Positions 38,921-62,947 of a DNA stretch of 64,000 nt are shown here, piece by piece. Within the stretch, counting starts at the first letter, position 1, and every line of letters begins with the position of its first letter. Position numbers and translations under genes: made by a program. The notes below the pieces were generated by a model. That model had not been told where the DNA came from, ran no database searches, and was given only the letters and a program-made list of their open reading frames with translations. The DNA is from Arthrobacter sp. Leaf141 (GTDB lineage: Bacteria > Actinomycetota > Actinomycetes > Actinomycetales > Micrococcaceae), in NCBI RefSeq assembly GCF_001424565.1, contig NZ_LMOL01000045.1, positions 80,544 to 144,543 of the forward strand, written 5' to 3'.

Positions 38921-39977
38921 GCCCGGCGGCCGGGGAGTTTCCGGAGCGGCCCAGCAACGCCGCCGCAGCCCACACGGCCAGCAGCAGGGCCACCAGGAGC
39001 AGGCCCGCTTCGCCCAGGTCGATCGACCCCAGCCATCCGGTCAGCGGATCGTCCAGGGCAAACGCGGCGTCGAAGAAGCCGCCCAGCGTGATCACGGCGA
39101 TGAACAGGGCCGAGACGGCTGAAATGCCGGTCACCGCGGCGTTGAAACCCAGTTTGCGCTGCGGGTCATCAAGCGCGGACCGGTACATCCGCATCATCGC
39201 CACTCCGTTGAGGGAGTCGCAGAGGGTCATCGCGGCCGTGAAAGCGAGCGGCAGGGCCAGCAGGGCGATGGGTGGTACCCCGGCCAGGGACGCGGCAGTG
39301 GTCATCATCAGCAACCCGATGGTCGTGGCGGTGTCGAACCCCAGCCCGAACAGGAATCCGATCACGTAGATGTTCCGTGGCCGCCGCACCCTGGCCAGCG
39401 GCCGGGCCAGGAGCTTCGCCACGAGGCCCGCGGGCTCCAGGTCGCGCGCCTCGATGGCGCCCCCGGCCCGGGCCCTGCGGTAGGCGCGCGCGGAGCGGGT
39501 GAACGCTGATCCGTTGAACAGGCCCATGGCCAGCAGGAACAGGCCCGAGACGCCGCTCCCGATCAACCCGAGCACCAGGTTGCCGGTTGTCCCCTCCTGC
39601 ATGGATTCGCCCACCGCGGCGGCGCCCGCGATTACCAGGATCCCCGCAAGGGTAACCACCGAGCTGTGTCCCAGGCTGAACGCGAAGCCGACACTGACCG
39701 GGTCCTGGCGCTGCGCCACGAACTTGCGGGTGGAGTTGTCGATCGCAGCCAGGTGGTCCCAGTCGTAGCTGTGCTTGACGCCGGCCAGGTAGGCGGTGAG
39801 CAGCAGGCCCAAGGTGAGGACCTGCCCGCCGGGCGCGCCGCCGCCGCCCACCAGCAACAGCACAACGGCGGCAACATGAAGCAGGGCCACGGCGCCGAAG
39901 GTAAACATCAGCCGGGTCCGGATGGGCAGGGCTTCCCGCTCGCGGTAGAAGGTGGCGAGGTGGGTCATGGCGGTCAT
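38898..39977 (-). CDS. NiCoT family nickel/cobalt permease
   Basis: A 359-residue membrane permease, last gene of the urease operon. The nickel signature HX4DH appears as HSYDWDH in TM2, followed by AAIDNSTRK. Other family marks are GFAFSLGHSSVV, FLFGLGFDTATTIGLL and the later FTAAMTLCDSLNGVAMMRMY. These correspond to the four conserved NiCoT motifs, although TM2 lacks the usual RHALDADH wording. It imports Ni2+ for the urease metallocentre. Its ATG shares one base with the ureD stop, tying nickel uptake to urease production. Confidence 0.88.
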   Translation of the reverse strand: MTAMTHLATFYREREALPIRTRLMFTFGAVALLHVAAVVLLLVGGGGAPGGQVLTLGLLLTAYLAGVKHSYDWDHLAAIDNSTRKFVAQRQDPVSVGFAFSLGHSSVVTLAGILVIAGAAAVGESMQEGTTGNLVLGLIGSGVSGLFLLAMGLFNGSAFTRSARAYRRARAGGAIEARDLEPAGLVAKLLARPLARVRRPRNIYVIGFLFGLGFDTATTIGLLMMTTAASLAGVPPIALLALPLAFTAAMTLCDSLNGVAMMRMYRSALDDPQRKLGFNAAVTGISAVSALFIAVITLGGFFDAAFALDDPLTGWLGSIDLGEAGLLLVALLLAVWAAAALLGRSGNSPAAGLRPPSHP

Positions 39978-40936
39978 CAGTGCTTCCTCAGGTTCAGGGG
40001 TTCCTGTCCGTGCCAGCGCGCACGGAGCAGGTTGGTGCAGGCAGCGAGCAGCCGGTTGAGCTCACCGGTACTGTCAGACAAGGCCCGCAGCACCAGGCCC
40101 GTGGTTCCCGCCACGGTCCGGGTGAGTGAGACACCGGCCAAGGCGTCGAACCCGGCGGTGCGCAGGTGCAGCTCGTCGGCGAGCGCCTGGTCAACCCGTG
40201 CGTCCACCACCACCAGGGAGCCCAGATGGCTGAAGCCTTCCATAAAGCCCAGGCCCGTGACGTCGCGTGCCGGCGGCTGGATCAACAGGTTATCGAGCAG
40301 CAGAAGCTCCAAGCCGCCGTCGTCAGCCAGGACCCGCACCTCGTTCCGGAGCCGGACTTCCTCGTAGCCGAACGCGGCGCCGTCCGGCGACCAGCCAGGG
40401 GTCACCACCTCGGCCATCACCAGGGCCGACGACGGCCGGACCGTAAACGCGGAATGTTGCCGGTAGCTGGCCTCGCGGTAGGCGATCAGCTGGTCCGGCA
40501 TCAGCTCCAGCCTGGCGCCCTCCCCCAGCCGCACGGCCATCCGCTGCTCGGCAAACGACCCGGGAGTCCGGTAAACCTTGGTAGCCGACTGAGTGGTCAG
40601 CAAAAGATCAGCCCCGGCCCGGACCTCAACATCCAGCAAAAATAGGTCAGCCCCAAGGTAAGCCCCACCAGGATTCACAACGACGTAGCAAACCTGCCCG
40701 GAGCCATCAAGGTAATGCGGCCGCAACACGCGAAGAGCACCTCGATGGTACTGACTGGACGCGATCGACCTTCCTCCGCGCATCTCGATGCCCAGCTCCA
40801 GTTGACCCCTCGCCGGGCGCTTAGCGGCCGCGGATGAAGGGGGCCGCGGCGTGGCGGGCACCGCGGAGCGGGCACGGCGCCCTTCATCCGCGGGCGCCGC
40901 CCAAGGTGAGTCAACGACGGAACTGCCGGTGCTCAT
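39977..40936 (-). CDS. ureD: Urease accessory protein UreD
   Basis: A 319-residue UreD/UreH, the scaffold that with UreF and UreG loads nickel into apo-urease. The conserved body starts near residue 48 ([13 protein letters not shown]) and includes [17 protein letters not shown] and [16 protein letters not shown]. The N-terminal segment about 13-38 (Pro-, Ala- and Arg-rich) is encoded by a palindromic repeat element at 40824-40897 and has no family counterpart I recall. The ATG overlaps the ureG stop by ATGA. Codons just after the element use more T-ending triplets than the rest of the operon. Confidence 0.9.
40824..40897. repeat. Palindromic element A, inside ureD
   Basis: The perfect core arms are GCGGATGAAGGG (40830-40841) and CCCTTCATCCGC (40880-40891); with two mismatches the stem extends to 40824-40846 and 40875-40897. 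The interior starts CCGCGGCGTGGCGGGCACC and ends AGCGGGCACGG, both shared with element B at 42271-42391. The element is in frame within ureD and adds about 25 residues. The stem sequences differ from those of B, but both are self-complementary. Confidence 0.8.
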
Positions 40937-41550
40937 GTCGCGAGGTCGAGCATCAGGACGTCGCGCCGCACCCATTCGATGACGGCGTCCAGGCCTTCGT
41001 CGGTTTTGAGGTTGGTGAAGCAGAAGGGTTTGGCGCCGCGGAACTCGCGGGAGTCCCGCTCCATGACGTTGAGGTCCGCGCCGACGTGGGGGGCCAGGTC
41101 GGTTTTGTTGATGATGAAGAGGTCGGACTTGATCATGCCCTGGCCGGCTTTGCGGGGGATCTTTTCGCCCTGGGCCACGTCGATGATGTAGATCGAGAAG
41201 TCCACCAGTTCGGGGCTGAAGGTGGCGGAGAGGTTGTCACCGCCGGATTCAACGAAGATGACCTGCAGGTCGGGGTGGCGGGCCTTGAGCTCCTCGATGG
41301 CCGCGGTGTTCATGGAGGTGTCTTCGCGGATGGCGGTGTGGGGGCAGCCGCCGGTTTCCACGCCGATGATGCGGTCCACGGGGAGGATGCCGTTGGCGGC
41401 CAGGATTTTGGCGTCCTCGATGGTGTAGATGTCGTTGGTGATGGCGGCCATGGAAATGTCGCCGCTCATGTGCCGGGTGAGGCGCTCCACCAGCTGGGTT
41501 TTGCCGGCGCCCACCGGTCCGCCGATGCCGATTTTGATGGGTTCACTCAT
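40933..41550 (-). CDS. ureG: Urease accessory GTPase UreG
   Basis: A 205-residue SIMIBI-class GTPase that powers nickel insertion into urease. The P-loop is GPVGAGKT at 11-18. The metal motif is [13 protein letters not shown] with the Cys-Pro-His nickel/zinc ligands, [15 protein letters not shown] is the switch region, and NKTDLAP gives guanine specificity. It is highly typical in length and sequence. It lies 13 bp after ureF and overlaps ureD by ATGA in the ureABCEFGD order. Confidence 0.97.
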
Positions 41551-41563
41551 GGGTTTCCTCCTG

Positions 41564-42229
41564 CTAGCTCATGAACATCCGGGCACGTTGACGCTCGTGC
41601 CGCATTTGAAAAATTTCCAGGCCGGGACTGACGGCGCCGAAGTCGTCAGGTGTGAGGTGCTTGACGCGTTCGACGGCGGCAGCAACGCCGTCGGCCGCCT
41701 CCCGCAGGAGCCGCTGCCCGGCGTTCTGGCCCAGCGGGATGGCGCGGACGGCATTTTGCGTCAGCGACGTCACCGTGGCGAAAAGGTAGGCGGCCAGCGC
41801 CTCCGCCAGCGGCACGTCCAGGGAGCGGGCGACGACGGCGAACGCCAGCGGCTGGTGCCCCACCGCGCGGCCGCCGCCCACCAGGTCCCGGTACAGCGCC
41901 AGTTCAGCGGAAGGAAAGATTTCGCCGCCGATTTCCAGAAGCCGGCCGCCCATCTTGGCGCTGGCCTCCCGGACCTGCCGCGGCAGCAGCGAAGCGGACA
42001 ACAGCGAATCCAACTCCGCAACATTCCACCCCTCATACAAAAACCGGATGGCCAACCCATCGGAATAAGTCAGCGACTGTGAAATAAACGCCCCCAGCCA
42101 GGCCCCAAAAGAAGCCTCATCAGCAACCAGCCCGGCGTCGACATAGCTCTCAAACCCCAGTGAGTGGGCAAAAGCCCCAGTAGGAAGCGCAGAGTCAGTA
42201 AGCTGCTGCAGAGCCAGCTGATAAGTCAC
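41564..42229 (-). CDS. ureF: Urease accessory protein UreF
   Basis: A 221-residue all-helical UreF that bridges UreG and UreD during urease maturation. It begins [26 protein letters not shown], the family hallmark, and later has LPLAEAL-type and [21 protein letters not shown] segments. The GTG start has only a weak G-rich ribosome site. The first 80 or so codons are rich in T-ending codons (GCT, ACT, TTT, GAT), unlike ureG and ureC, while the 3' half is GC-ending. It follows ureE after a 213-bp gap that holds repeat element B. Confidence 0.93.
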
Positions 42230-42270
42230 GATGGGTACCCCGGCGATGGGTGACCAATCGGATCGGCGGA

Positions 42271-42391
42271 GGCGGGAGATAGGGGCCGCGGCGTGGCGGG
42301 CACCGCGGGGGGCCCACTGCCGCGAGGGCCCCGACCCGAGCTTGCGAGGGTTGGGAGCGGCTGGGGACGGGCACGGCCCCTATCTCCCGCC
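42271..42391. repeat. Palindromic element B, ureE-ureF gap
   Basis: A 121-bp element bounded by perfect 18-bp inverted arms: GGCGGGAGATAGGGGCCG (42271-42288) and CGGCCCCTATCTCCCGCC (42374-42391). The left interior shares GGGGCCGCGGCGTGGCGGGC and the following ACCGCGG with element A, and the right interior shares GGGCACGG. B has an extra middle segment of about 55 bp with its own imperfect hairpin around CCCGAGCTTGCGAGGG. It interrupts an otherwise tightly packed operon. Confidence 0.85.
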
Positions 42392-42442
42392 GAAGCAGCA
42401 CAGCCCCCCACACCCCGTAGCGCACCCAACAAGGCGCCGAAC

Positions 42443-42922
42443 CTAGTGACTGTGCTCAGCATGGCGGAATGGCACGGGCAGAACGCGTTCCTGCCGGGAG
42501 TAGGGCACGCCGACGTGGAGCAGGTAGTCCTCGACGGTGTGGTCGTAGGCGCACACCATGACCTCGGCCGCGTAGTCGGAGGTCGAGTCGAAGAACTGGG
42601 CCTGGAGGTGGCGGTTGCCCAGGGAATGGGCCACCACGCCCATCTCGTGGAGGGTGCGGGGTGCGATGACCAGCACGTCGGTGGGCAGGACGGAGACAAC
42701 AATCAGGTTGTTGCCGGAGACGTGCAGGATGTCGCCGTCGCGCAGGTCCCCGGATCCGGAGGGCAGCCGGATGCCGAGTTCCTTGCCGTGGTCGGTGGTG
42801 GCGCGCTGGATGCGTTTGACCAGCTGTGCGCTGGGCAGCACCACTTTTTCGTGGTGGAGGCCGGCGTAGGTGTGTGGGTCGGGGAGTTCGTGCAGGTTGC
42901 CGAGGACTTTTTCGATGATCAT
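42443..42922 (-). CDS. ureE: Urease accessory metallochaperone UreE
   Basis: A 159-residue UreE nickel chaperone. The N-terminal peptide-binding domain (about 1-75) reads IIEKVLGNLHELPDPHTYAG and VLPSAQLVKRIQRATTDHGKELGIRL. The C-terminal domain has the GNRHLQAQF segment with the metal-binding His, and the tail ends FRHAEHSH, a short His-containing nickel-binding tail rather than a long poly-His. It delivers Ni2+ to UreG. It starts 16 bp after ureC. Confidence 0.95.
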   Translation of the reverse strand: MIIEKVLGNLHELPDPHTYAGLHHEKVVLPSAQLVKRIQRATTDHGKELGIRLPSGSGDLRDGDILHVSGNNLIVVSVLPTDVLVIAPRTLHEMGVVAHSLGNRHLQAQFFDSTSDYAAEVMVCAYDHTVEDYLLHVGVPYSRQERVLPVPFRHAEHSH

Positions 42923-42938: not shown

Positions 42939-44684
42939 TTAGAAGAGGAAGTATCGCTGCGCCATGGGCAGCACGTCGGAGGGCTCGCAGGTGACGTCCT
43001 CGCCGTCGACCGTCACCTGGTACGTTTCCGGGTCCACCTGGATGTCGGGGGTGGCGTCGTTGTACTTGAGGTCGGCTTTGGTGAGGGTGCGGATGCCGGA
43101 GACCGGCCGGATGACCTTTTCCAGGCCCAGCTCCGCGGGGACGCCGGCGTCGATGGCGGCCTGGGACAGGAAGGTGATGGAGGACTGCTGCAGGGCTTTC
43201 CCGAAGGTGGCAAACATGGGCCGCATGGTGCGCGGCTGAGGGGTGGGGATGGAGGCGTTGGCGTCACCCATCAGGGCATAGGCAATCTGCCCGCCTTTGA
43301 GGACCAGTTCAGGTTTGACGCCGAAAAATGCTGGATCCCACAGGACCAGGTCAGCGAATTTGCCTTCCTCCACGGAACCCACGGAGTCGGCGATGCCCTG
43401 GGCGATGGCGGGGTTGATGGTGTATTTCGCCACGTAACGCTTGAGCCGGAAGTTGTCGCTTTCCGCGCCCAGGCCCGCAGCGGCGCCGTGGACTCCGCCG
43501 GCGGGGTCCTTGAGCACGCCGCGCTGCTTTTTCATCTTGTCCGCCACCTGCCAGGTGCGGGTGATCACCTCGCCCACCCGGCCCATGGCCTGCGAGTCGG
43601 AGGAGGTGATGGCGAAGACGCCCAGGTCCTGCAGCACGTCCTCGGCGGCAATGGTTTCGGCGCGGATGCGGGAATCGGCGAAGGCCACGTCCTCCGGGAT
43701 GTCCGGGTTCAGGTGGTGGCACACCATCAGCATGTCCAGGTGCTCTTCGATGGTGTTGCGGGTGTACGGCAGGGTGGGGTTGGTGGAGGCGGGCAGGACG
43801 TTGGGCATGCCGGCGATTTTAATGATGTCGGGGGCGTGGCCGCCGCCGGCGCCTTCGGTGTGGAAGGTGTGGATGACCCGGCCGCCGATGGCCCGGATGG
43901 TGTCCTCCACAAACCCGCATTCGTTCAGGGTGTCGGTGTGGATGGCCACCTGGACGTCGTACTGGTCCGCAACGGTGAGTGACATGTCGATGGAGGATGT
44001 GGTGGAGCCCCAGTCCTCGTGGACTTTCAGCCCGATCGCGCCGGCCCGGATCTGCTCGGCGAGGGGTTCGACGGCGGACGCGTGGCCTTTGCCGAACAGC
44101 CCGATGTTGATGGGCAGTCCCTCCGACGCCTGCAGCATCCGCTGGATGTGCCATTTACCGGGGGTCACGGTGGTGGCTTTGGTGCCTTCGGCCGGGCCGG
44201 TGCCCCCGCCGATCATGGTGGTCACGCCGCTGGTGAGGGCGGTGGGGACCTGGTCCGGGGAGATGAAGTGGATGTGGGTGTCCACGCCGCCGGCGGTGAG
44301 GATTTTCCGTTCCCCGGCGATGATCTCGGTGCTGGCGCCGATCACAATGTCCACGCCGTCCGTGATCTGCGGGTTGCCGGCTTTGCCGATTTTGAGGATG
44401 TGGCCGTCCTTGAGGGCAATATCCGCTTTGTAGATTCCGGTGCTGTCCAGGATCACGGCGTTGGTGATCACGGTGTCCGGGACGTCCTCATCGCGGGTGG
44501 CCTGGCCGTTCTGGCCCATGCCGTCGCGGATCACTTTCCCGCCGCCAAACACCACCTCCTCGCCGTAAACGGTGCGGTCCTGCTCGATTTCGAGGAACAG
44601 TTCGGTGTCCGCCAGGCGGATCCGGTCGCCGGTGGTGGGCCCGTACAGGTCGGCGTATTGCCGGCGGGGAATCTCGAAGCTCAT
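42939..44684 (-). CDS. ureC: Urease alpha subunit UreC
   Basis: A 581-residue catalytic urease subunit, which hydrolyses urea to ammonia and carbamate. The nickel ligands lie in THIHFI (about 141-146), the carbamylated Lys in [10 protein letters not shown] (about 225), the His in VAIHTDT and in [12 protein letters not shown], and the flap Cys-His-His in MVCHHLN. All are intact. The length is close to the family norm of about 570. It overlaps ureB by ATGA (44681-44684). Activity needs the UreDEFG proteins encoded downstream. Confidence 0.98.
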
Positions 44685-62905: not shown

Positions 62906-62947
62906 CCACGTTCCCCGCCCCGCTTTTTGGCGGAGCGGGGAACGTGG
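62906..62947. terminator. Intra-operon hairpin between pstS and pstC
   Basis: CCACGTTCCCCGCCCCGC (62906-62923) pairs with GCGGAGCGGGGAACGTGG (62930-62947) at 17 of 18 positions around a 6-base loop. It starts 13 bp after the pstS stop. It probably lets most transcripts end or be stabilised after pstS, giving excess binding protein over permease. Confidence 0.82.

What the first reader, a model, noticed from the sequence alone, without database searches (positions are those of the whole stretch)
40824..42391. Stem-variant palindromic repeat family inside the urease operon
Element A (in ureD) and element B (in the ureE-ureF gap) share a core of about 25 bp on the left (CCGCGGCGTGGCGGGCACC and neighbours) and GCGGGCACGG or GGGCACGG on the right. 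The flanking arms differ in sequence (GATGAAGGG against GAGATAGGGG), yet each pairs perfectly with its own partner. Simple transposon ends would be conserved; instead the stems covary, which points to a structure-selected or structure-copied element. One copy is in frame inside an essential maturation gene and adds about 25 residues to UreD; the other breaks an otherwise compact operon and could act as an RNA processing or stability element. I do not recognise the family.
Basis: seen in the sequence. Interest (0 to 1): 0.75.

Follow-up and report, generated by a model that had tools for sequence, protein, structure and literature searches.

The report
Translated mobile hairpin elements in Arthrobacter
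A short hairpin-forming DNA repeat has spread through Arthrobacter-type bacteria by landing inside genes without breaking their reading frame, and its two stem strands keep matching each other even where their sequence changes, much like the 'selfish' palindromes known from Rickettsia but with stems that stay matched.

Summary
Palindromes A (40824-40897) and B (42271-42391) share a conserved core and have different, self-complementary stems. They belong to a dispersed family (F1) of Micrococcaceae: 12 clustered sites plus cysD, argD, a PTS gene and one more locus, few copies per genome. In 56 distinct stem pairs there are 701 Watson-Crick cells, 1 G-T, 10 A-C and 13 other mismatches: pairing is kept almost without wobble, which points to DNA-level arm copying (replication template switching) rather than RNA selection. 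One genome has an 87-bp unit, stems included, identical at two unrelated loci.

Main correction: both window copies lie in reading frames. A is in frame in the UreD N-terminus (54 of 58 element-bearing loci keep frame). B is not in a non-coding gap: it lies in a 78-codon leader ORF that starts inside ureE, corresponds to the N-terminus of ureF in relatives without the element, and in 48 of 53 loci stops on or beside a new ureF start. F1 is also in frame in CysD, ArgD, PTS-fructose EII and two E2 linkers. Y1/RAYT transposase: 1 of 101 genomes, not this one.

Best reading: RPE-like, non-autonomous, protein-coding hairpin elements whose stems are maintained. Mobilising enzyme and host function unknown.

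The parts
40824..40897 (-). Element A (family F1, short form): palindrome with 23-nt arms, in frame at about residues 14-38 of UreD
   Evidence: (79.2 bits with model R1)
40842..40862 (.). Conserved core of A (GGCCGCGGCGTGGCGGGCACC on +)
42271..42391 (-). Element B (family F1, long form): 18-bp perfect stem, 85-nt spacer
42284..42304 (.). Conserved core of B
42309..42367 (-). Nested F3 hairpin (CTCGCAAGCTCG-type) inside the loop of B; net +57 nt against the short form
   Evidence: limits read by eye
42226..42462 (-). Leader ORF (78 codons + stop): ATG inside the 3' end of ureE, reads through B, TGA overlaps the GTG start of ureF; the same ATG starts ureF itself in most element-free relatives
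39977..40936 (-). ureD (ATG overlaps ureG stop as ATGA); UreD domain starts at residue 85, after the element
40933..41550 (-). ureG
41564..42229 (-). ureF (GTG start)
42443..42922 (-). ureE

Best explanation
The two palindromes are copies of F1, a small (about 65-90 bp; about 120 bp with a nested hairpin) non-autonomous dispersed element of Micrococcaceae that behaves like a protein-coding palindromic element. Shown: the whole hairpin, stems included, occurs at unrelated loci; it is found where the reading frame stays open (N-termini of UreD, UreF, CysD, ArgD; linkers of PTS-fructose EII and E2 proteins) and also between genes. Shown: stems change sequence in matched pairs with almost no wobble intermediates, and the unit is found in both orientations at one site. 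Inferred: arm pairing is restored by DNA-replication template switching inside the hairpin (quasipalindrome correction), which can also invert spacers. Inferred: the conserved apical core is what an unknown trans-acting machinery recognises for propagation. Inferred: at ureF the insertion turned the old N-terminus into a separately translated leader that hands the ribosome to ureF through a stop-start overlap.
For: Dispersal: 167 elements from fetched loci cluster into 12 sites, besides cysD in two genera, argD, a PTS gene and the L097/L100 locus. In genome G117 the unit is identical over 87 bp at ureD (L096) and at an unrelated locus (L097) whose outer flanks match only 33% and 27%. Frame: ureD 54 of 58 filled loci in frame; ureE-ureF: of 53 filled loci 43 have a leader stopping in an NTGA overlap with the ureF start (17 distinct leader lengths), 5 in a TAATG or TAGTG overlap, 3 are fused in frame to UreF, 2 are broken. 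In frame in ArgD, PTS EIIABC linker, two E2 linkers and CysD. Stems: 41 distinct elements, 697 cells, 162 changed on both sides, none with a one-sided standard change; 0 of 500 shuffles as good on percent paired, doubly changed cells or covariation score (on the count of further pair types shuffles do as well, 474 of 500). 56 distinct arm pairs: 701 WC, 1 GT, 10 AC, 13 other, 7 bulges. Orientation at the ureD site: 45 forward, 15 inverted, 15 without, of 75 distinct loci. F3 hairpins nested inside F1 and F2 hairpins and alone. Range, own genome included: 3 of 394 class-wide and 7 of 248 order-wide genomes, each of the own genus; 23 of 197 in the family, 6 of 32 genera.
Against: No clean empty site was found: the apparent empties in ureD, cysD and argD can be deletion remnants or differ throughout the N-terminus, so no target-site duplication or insertion event could be read. 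No mobilising enzyme was found. 149 of the 167 elements sit at three conserved sites (56, 47 and 46), which looks like old inheritance more than active movement (the loci were partly chosen for the core). Within an arm type, stems (0.11-0.15 differences) and core (0.00-0.04) are more conserved than flanks (0.36-0.42) and than ureG third positions (0.25-0.27, urease sites only); that suggests purifying selection or renewal at the site, which plain selfish decay does not predict. Translation is inferred from open frames, template switching from the pattern; neither was observed.
Confidence: 0.68

Rival explanations
1. A selected nucleic-acid structure: a hairpin with a conserved apical motif that a host protein or RNase recognises in operon mRNA (or in DNA), tuning ureF/ureD or other downstream genes; stems vary because only pairing matters.
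For: Core and stems are more conserved than flanks at the same site; copies sit at gene junctions (ureE/ureF, ureG/ureD, grpE-dnaJ, downstream of a glycerol-kinase-type gene); very stable fold.
Against: Few G-U pairs: 1 GT against 10 AC in 56 arm pairs in the core's forward direction; turned by eye to the coding strand for the inverted copies it is 2 GT, 8 AC and 1 of unknown direction, still the reverse of what sense-RNA selection favours. Absent at the ureF site in 13 and at the ureD site in 10 of the 30 ureG loci read (counted by eye). Inverted at the same site. Present inside protein linkers of unrelated genes. No Rfam match above gathering score at F1-F3 in the stretches tested.
Confidence: 0.2
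2. REP/RAYT-type or MITE-type repeat moved by a transposase that binds conserved termini.
For: Short palindromic, dispersed, nested with other palindromes.
Against: Y1_Tnp in 1 of 101 genus genomes, not in this one. Stems are not conserved between copies. Few copies: own genome, at most three model matches in a hit genome. No target-site duplication found.
Confidence: 0.07
3. Arm types are alleles of one ancestral insertion per site, exchanged between species by homologous recombination; covariation reflects a handful of old events and the family is no longer mobile.
For: Arms fall into discrete types per site, and close relatives can carry different types (L073 and L076, ureG third-position difference 0.093).
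Against: Same 87-bp unit at two unrelated loci of one genome; eight of the 12 clustered sites were seen in a single locus.
Confidence: 0.05

Closest known systems
Rickettsia palindromic elements (RPE), with the Wolbachia and Methanocaldococcus coding palindromes listed in the references of PMC2229807 (passages read)
   Same: Short hairpin repeat found both between genes and in frame inside conserved protein genes; F1 is likewise read in several frames and sits at protein edges and linkers.
   Different: RPEs are 105-146 bp with terminal inverted repeats (PMC2229807 passage) and lose repeat identity with time (PMC6649704 passage). F1 keeps its stems paired while their sequence changes, has a conserved apical core, was seen only in Micrococcaceae and has few copies per genome. 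Sequence similarity to RPE was not tested.
Coding palindromes of nematomorph mitochondria (PMC6649704, passages read)
   Same: Inverted repeats inside coding genes with arms kept matched; template switching named there as a possible mechanism.
   Different: Those are perfect repeats up to 284 bp in mitochondrial genes; F1 is a dispersed bacterial family with one core.
Template-switch maintenance of hairpins (PMC8794818, abstract and start of introduction read) and spacer inversion in yeast coding inverted repeats (PMC8604942, abstract read)
   Same: Mechanism that gives multi-base compensatory changes, arm homogenisation and spacer inversion.
   Different: Those describe a mutation process at resident sequences; here it would act on a dispersed element.
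REP/RAYT elements (PMC3733652 and PMC12306157, passages read)
   Same: Small palindromic repeats near gene ends. PMC12306157 tabulates predicted REPs for one Arthrobacter genome (A. livingstonensis) without, in the passages seen, describing this family.
   Different: REPs are defined there as mostly extragenic, highly similar and repeated; F1 is mostly in coding frames at the sites checked, has variable stems and few copies, and no Y1_Tnp gene was found in this genome.

Membership tests
RPE-like protein-coding palindromic elements (as a kind) | Palindromic repeat able to fold into a long hairpin | tested here: met
RPE-like protein-coding palindromic elements (as a kind) | Inserted in frame in unrelated conserved protein genes, and also intergenic | tested here: met
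   ureD 54 of 58; ureF leader 48 of 53 plus 3 of 53 fused; cysD, argD, PTS EII, E2; downstream of a glycerol-kinase-type gene. Open frames only; translation itself not tested
RPE-like protein-coding palindromic elements (as a kind) | Dispersed (copies at non-orthologous loci) | tested here: met
Rickettsia palindromic elements proper | Sequence homology to the RPE families | not tested
   No RPE reference was fetched
REP/RAYT | Associated Y1 transposase (RAYT) in the genome | tested here: not met
   1 of 101 genomes, not own
REP/RAYT | High copy number of a conserved short palindrome | tested here: not met
   two exact cores and five model matches at E<=1 in own genome, three of them at E<=0.15
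MITE | Conserved terminal inverted repeats | tested here: not met
   45 distinct 10-nt left-arm sequences in 136 elements; copies of one arm type do share their stems
MITE | Target-site duplication | tested here: inconclusive
   no clean empty site
Structured RNA family in Rfam | Match above gathering score at the element | tested here: not met
   (the mir-9201 hit on L112 scores 29.9 against 95.5 needed)
RNA helix under selection | G-U wobble among pair variants, fewer A-C than G-U mismatches | tested here: not met
   1 GT, 10 AC; no one-sided standard change in 697 cells. No RNA family was counted as a positive control

The most novel reading that the evidence does not exclude
A class of protein-coding hairpin elements (at least F1, F2 and F3) whose propagation depends on a conserved apical motif while replication template switching keeps rewriting both stem strands together. 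Such hairpins would be a natural record of DNA-level compensatory evolution that mimics RNA covariation. At ureF the element has been domesticated as the body of a leader peptide for stop-start translational coupling.
Probability: 0.35. Interest if true: 0.8.

Novelty: new variant of a known kind. Interest (0 to 1): 0.64.

Why it matters
Covarying stems are commonly taken as proof of a selected RNA structure. Here is a family in which stems covary strongly (0 of 500 shuffles as good on three measures) with very few wobble pairs and inside translated-looking protein termini, which suggests that covariation can come from a DNA copying process. It would also extend in-frame 'selfish' palindromes from Rickettsia and its like to free-living soil actinobacteria, where the effect on urease, CysD or ArgD can be tested genetically. 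And it re-reads the ureE-ureF gap of this genus as a leader ORF. Five full-text searches of the open-licence library listed no paper whose title or abstract start describes such elements in Arthrobacter or other actinobacteria; passages of three listed papers did not either. Subscription journals are not covered.

Tried and rejected
Chance: rejected. RAYT/REP: not supported. Rfam riboswitch, ribozyme or sRNA: nothing above gathering score at the elements in the stretches tested. Within-genome homogenisation of the core as the cause of its conservation: not supported (17 loci with both ureF and ureD copies, mean difference 0.88 against 1.15 in shuffles, p 0.10; identical in 5 against 4.4 expected). 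Arms as inverted copies of the host flank: suggested by cysD (right arm CCCTCAGCCGAGCG also present in element-free L291 and L270) and by ureD L076, but deletion remnants explain the cases as well, so left open. A box like CACCTTGGGCG beside some copies at the ureF, ureD and dnaJ sites is missing at others, so not taken as part of the element. Extra weak own-genome model hits (L113, L114) look like chance. L136 (E 6e-4) lies in a long ORF and may be a chance match. Filled/unfilled ratios are not frequencies: many loci were fetched because they hold the core. Alignment A1 was chosen for arm complementarity; one search loosened that: of 145 core hits 136 were used, 9 dropped for odd core length or poor arm alignment. 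demands a stem score, so it misses bulged copies such as L097.

Full report
What is there. The window holds a urease operon on the minus strand (ureA-B-C-E-F-G-D; E, F, G and D confirmed by Pfam, A-C read from the ORFs). Element A lies at 40824-40897 and element B at 42271-42391. They share the core GGCCGCGGCGTGGCGGGCACC exactly; their arms differ and each pairs with its own partner. In 64 kb only three perfect stems of 13 bp or more with 8-130 nt loops exist, and these are two of them.

Family and range. The core within two mismatches occurs in 107 of 150 genomes of the genus; in the capped list many genomes have it twice about 1.45 kb apart, i.e. at the same two urease sites (the reversed control pattern also gives some hits). 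The core with up to one mismatch was seen in 3 of 394 class-wide genomes and the covariance model hit 7 of 248 order-wide genomes, each of the own genus and own genome included; in the family the model hits 23 of 197 genomes in 6 of 32 genera. From 167 elements in fetched loci, flank clustering gives 12 sites: ureE-ureF 56, downstream of a glycerol-kinase-type gene 47, ureG-ureD 46, grpE-dnaJ 10, and eight seen once (gene names by Pfam for one locus each). Further sites are cysD in two genera, argD, a fructose PTS gene and the L097/L100 locus. The own genome has one more clear, diverged copy.

Dispersal of the whole unit. In genome G117 the copy in ureD (L096) and a copy at an unrelated locus (L097) are identical over 87 bp, stems included, while the outer flanks match only 33% and 27%. 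So stems can travel with the core, and the different stems seen at different sites are best read as diverged subfamilies. A second hairpin (F3, loop CTCGCAAGCTCG) is nested in the loop of B and of other F1 copies, is nested in a third family (F2, core GGCCCGATGCCACTCCC) and occurs alone. F2 has two variable stems, outer and inner, around conserved strands, and also occurs in frame in cysD and in the grpE-dnaJ gap. The own genome has F2 copies on C2 (partly masked) and C15.

Stems. In an alignment of 41 distinct short-form elements, 17 stem pairs give 697 cells: 96.6% pair, 162 carry changes on both sides, none carries a one-sided standard change. None of 500 shuffles and no slid register reaches the observed percent paired, doubly changed cells or covariation score; for the number of further pair types 474 of 500 shuffles do. 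These 41 were picked for complementary arms. With that loosened, 56 distinct arm pairs give 701 Watson-Crick cells, 1 G-T, 10 A-C, 13 other mismatches and 7 bulges. The direction counted is that of the core; turning inverted copies to the coding strand by eye gives 2 G-T, 8 A-C and 1 of unknown direction. Compensatory changes in RNA are commonly believed to pass through G-U (PMC8794818, start of introduction read); here A-C, which does not pair in RNA, outnumbers G-U, so RNA pairing does not look like what keeps the stems matched. No RNA family of the same genomes was counted as a control. Template switching within a hairpin creates matched multi-base changes (PMC8794818, abstract) and inverts spacers in coding inverted repeats (PMC8604942, abstract). 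The ureD site shows both orientations: 45 forward, 15 inverted and 15 without the element among 75 distinct loci. In the inverted copies read the outer stem segments are inverted too, so re-insertion is as possible as spacer inversion. I infer template switching; it was not observed.

Rates. Pairs of elements with the same arm type at one site differ in the arms by 0.11-0.15, in the core by 0.00-0.04, in the flanks by 0.36-0.42 (0.49 between types), and, at the urease sites, in ureG third positions by 0.25-0.27. Close relatives can carry different arm types. So the element resists decay more than its surroundings. This is the strongest point for a function at the site or for repeated renewal, and plain neutral decay does not explain it. 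Core similarity within genomes is not significantly raised (17 loci, p 0.10).

Reading frames. Element A is inside UreD: the ATG overlaps the ureG stop, the element covers about residues 14-38, and the UreD domain begins at residue 85. In 54 of 58 filled ureD loci, and 15 of 15 without the element, an in-frame start exists at the ureG junction; the four exceptions are L048, L103, L119 and L243, of which L048, L119 and L243 show an ATG after the element and L103 a duplicated loop segment. The supposed ureE-ureF gap is an ORF. Of 11 element-free loci, ureF itself starts at an ATG 17 nt before the ureE stop in 7; one (L199) has a leader with what looks like a decayed element, one (L068) lacks that ATG and two fit neither pattern. 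In the 53 filled loci that ATG opens a leader through the element; it ends in an NTGA overlap with a new ureF start in 43, in a TAATG or TAGTG overlap in 5, is fused in frame to UreF in 3, and is broken in 2. The 43 leaders have 17 different lengths, and two forward reading frames of the element are used. In the window the leader is 42226-42462, 78 residues. Translation is inferred from these frames.

Other hosts. F1 is in frame at the N-terminus of CysD (7 of 33 loci, 5 of them distinct by sequence; another genus), at the N-terminus of ArgD (L298, L299; the acetylornithine transaminase model starts at residue 45), in the linker between EIIA and EIIB of a fructose PTS protein, and in two E2 acyltransferases between lipoyl and E3-binding domains. 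The argD N-terminus also shows in-frame deletion remnants (L302, L304, L314), F3-like copies (L301, L321) and REP-like GGTTGAGCTGGTCGAAACC repeats, so these N-termini collect such elements.

Comparison. The nearest known kind is the Rickettsia palindromic element: 105-146 bp, hairpin, found between genes and fused in frame in protein genes (PMC2229807, passages read; also PMC3733652, passages read). RPEs lose repeat identity with time (PMC6649704, passage read); F1 does not. Homology to RPE was not tested. REP/RAYT membership fails on transposase and copy number; MITE membership fails on conserved termini.

Limits. No clean empty site, no mobilising enzyme, no expression data. Loci were partly chosen because they carry the core.

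Noticed in passing
window 44240-44533 (+): Rfam RF02514 (5' ureB small RNA) matches at 109 bits on the strand opposite ureC; it may only reflect conserved urease coding sequence.
   Followed up: no
L272, L274, L277, L285 (cysD) and L058, L091-L093, L095, L098 (grpE-dnaJ gap); own genome C2:118217 and C15:12451: A second palindromic family (F2) with two sequence-variable stems around conserved strands, in frame in cysD.
   Followed up: partly
L067, L281, L286 (alone); L094, L190, L195 (inside F2); window 42309-42367 (inside F1): A third hairpin family (F3, CTCGCAAGCTCG) that nests in the loops of F1 and F2.
   Followed up: partly
argD N-termini, L298-L327: N-terminus of ArgD holds different in-frame palindromic repeats in different species (F1, F3-like, REP-like GGTTGAGCTGGTCGAAACC, deletion remnants).
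   Followed up: partly
L103: Loop of the ureD element carries a tandem repeat, and the upstream ureD start is out of frame.
   Followed up: no
L108: ureD matches in three pieces, so it may be frameshifted in this genome or by assembly.
   Followed up: no
window 62906-62947: Separate 13-bp perfect hairpin with a T-rich loop, not of this family.
   Followed up: no
beside elements at ureF, ureD and dnaJ sites: A box like CACCTTGGGCG recurs near the stem at several non-homologous sites but not at others.
   Followed up: partly
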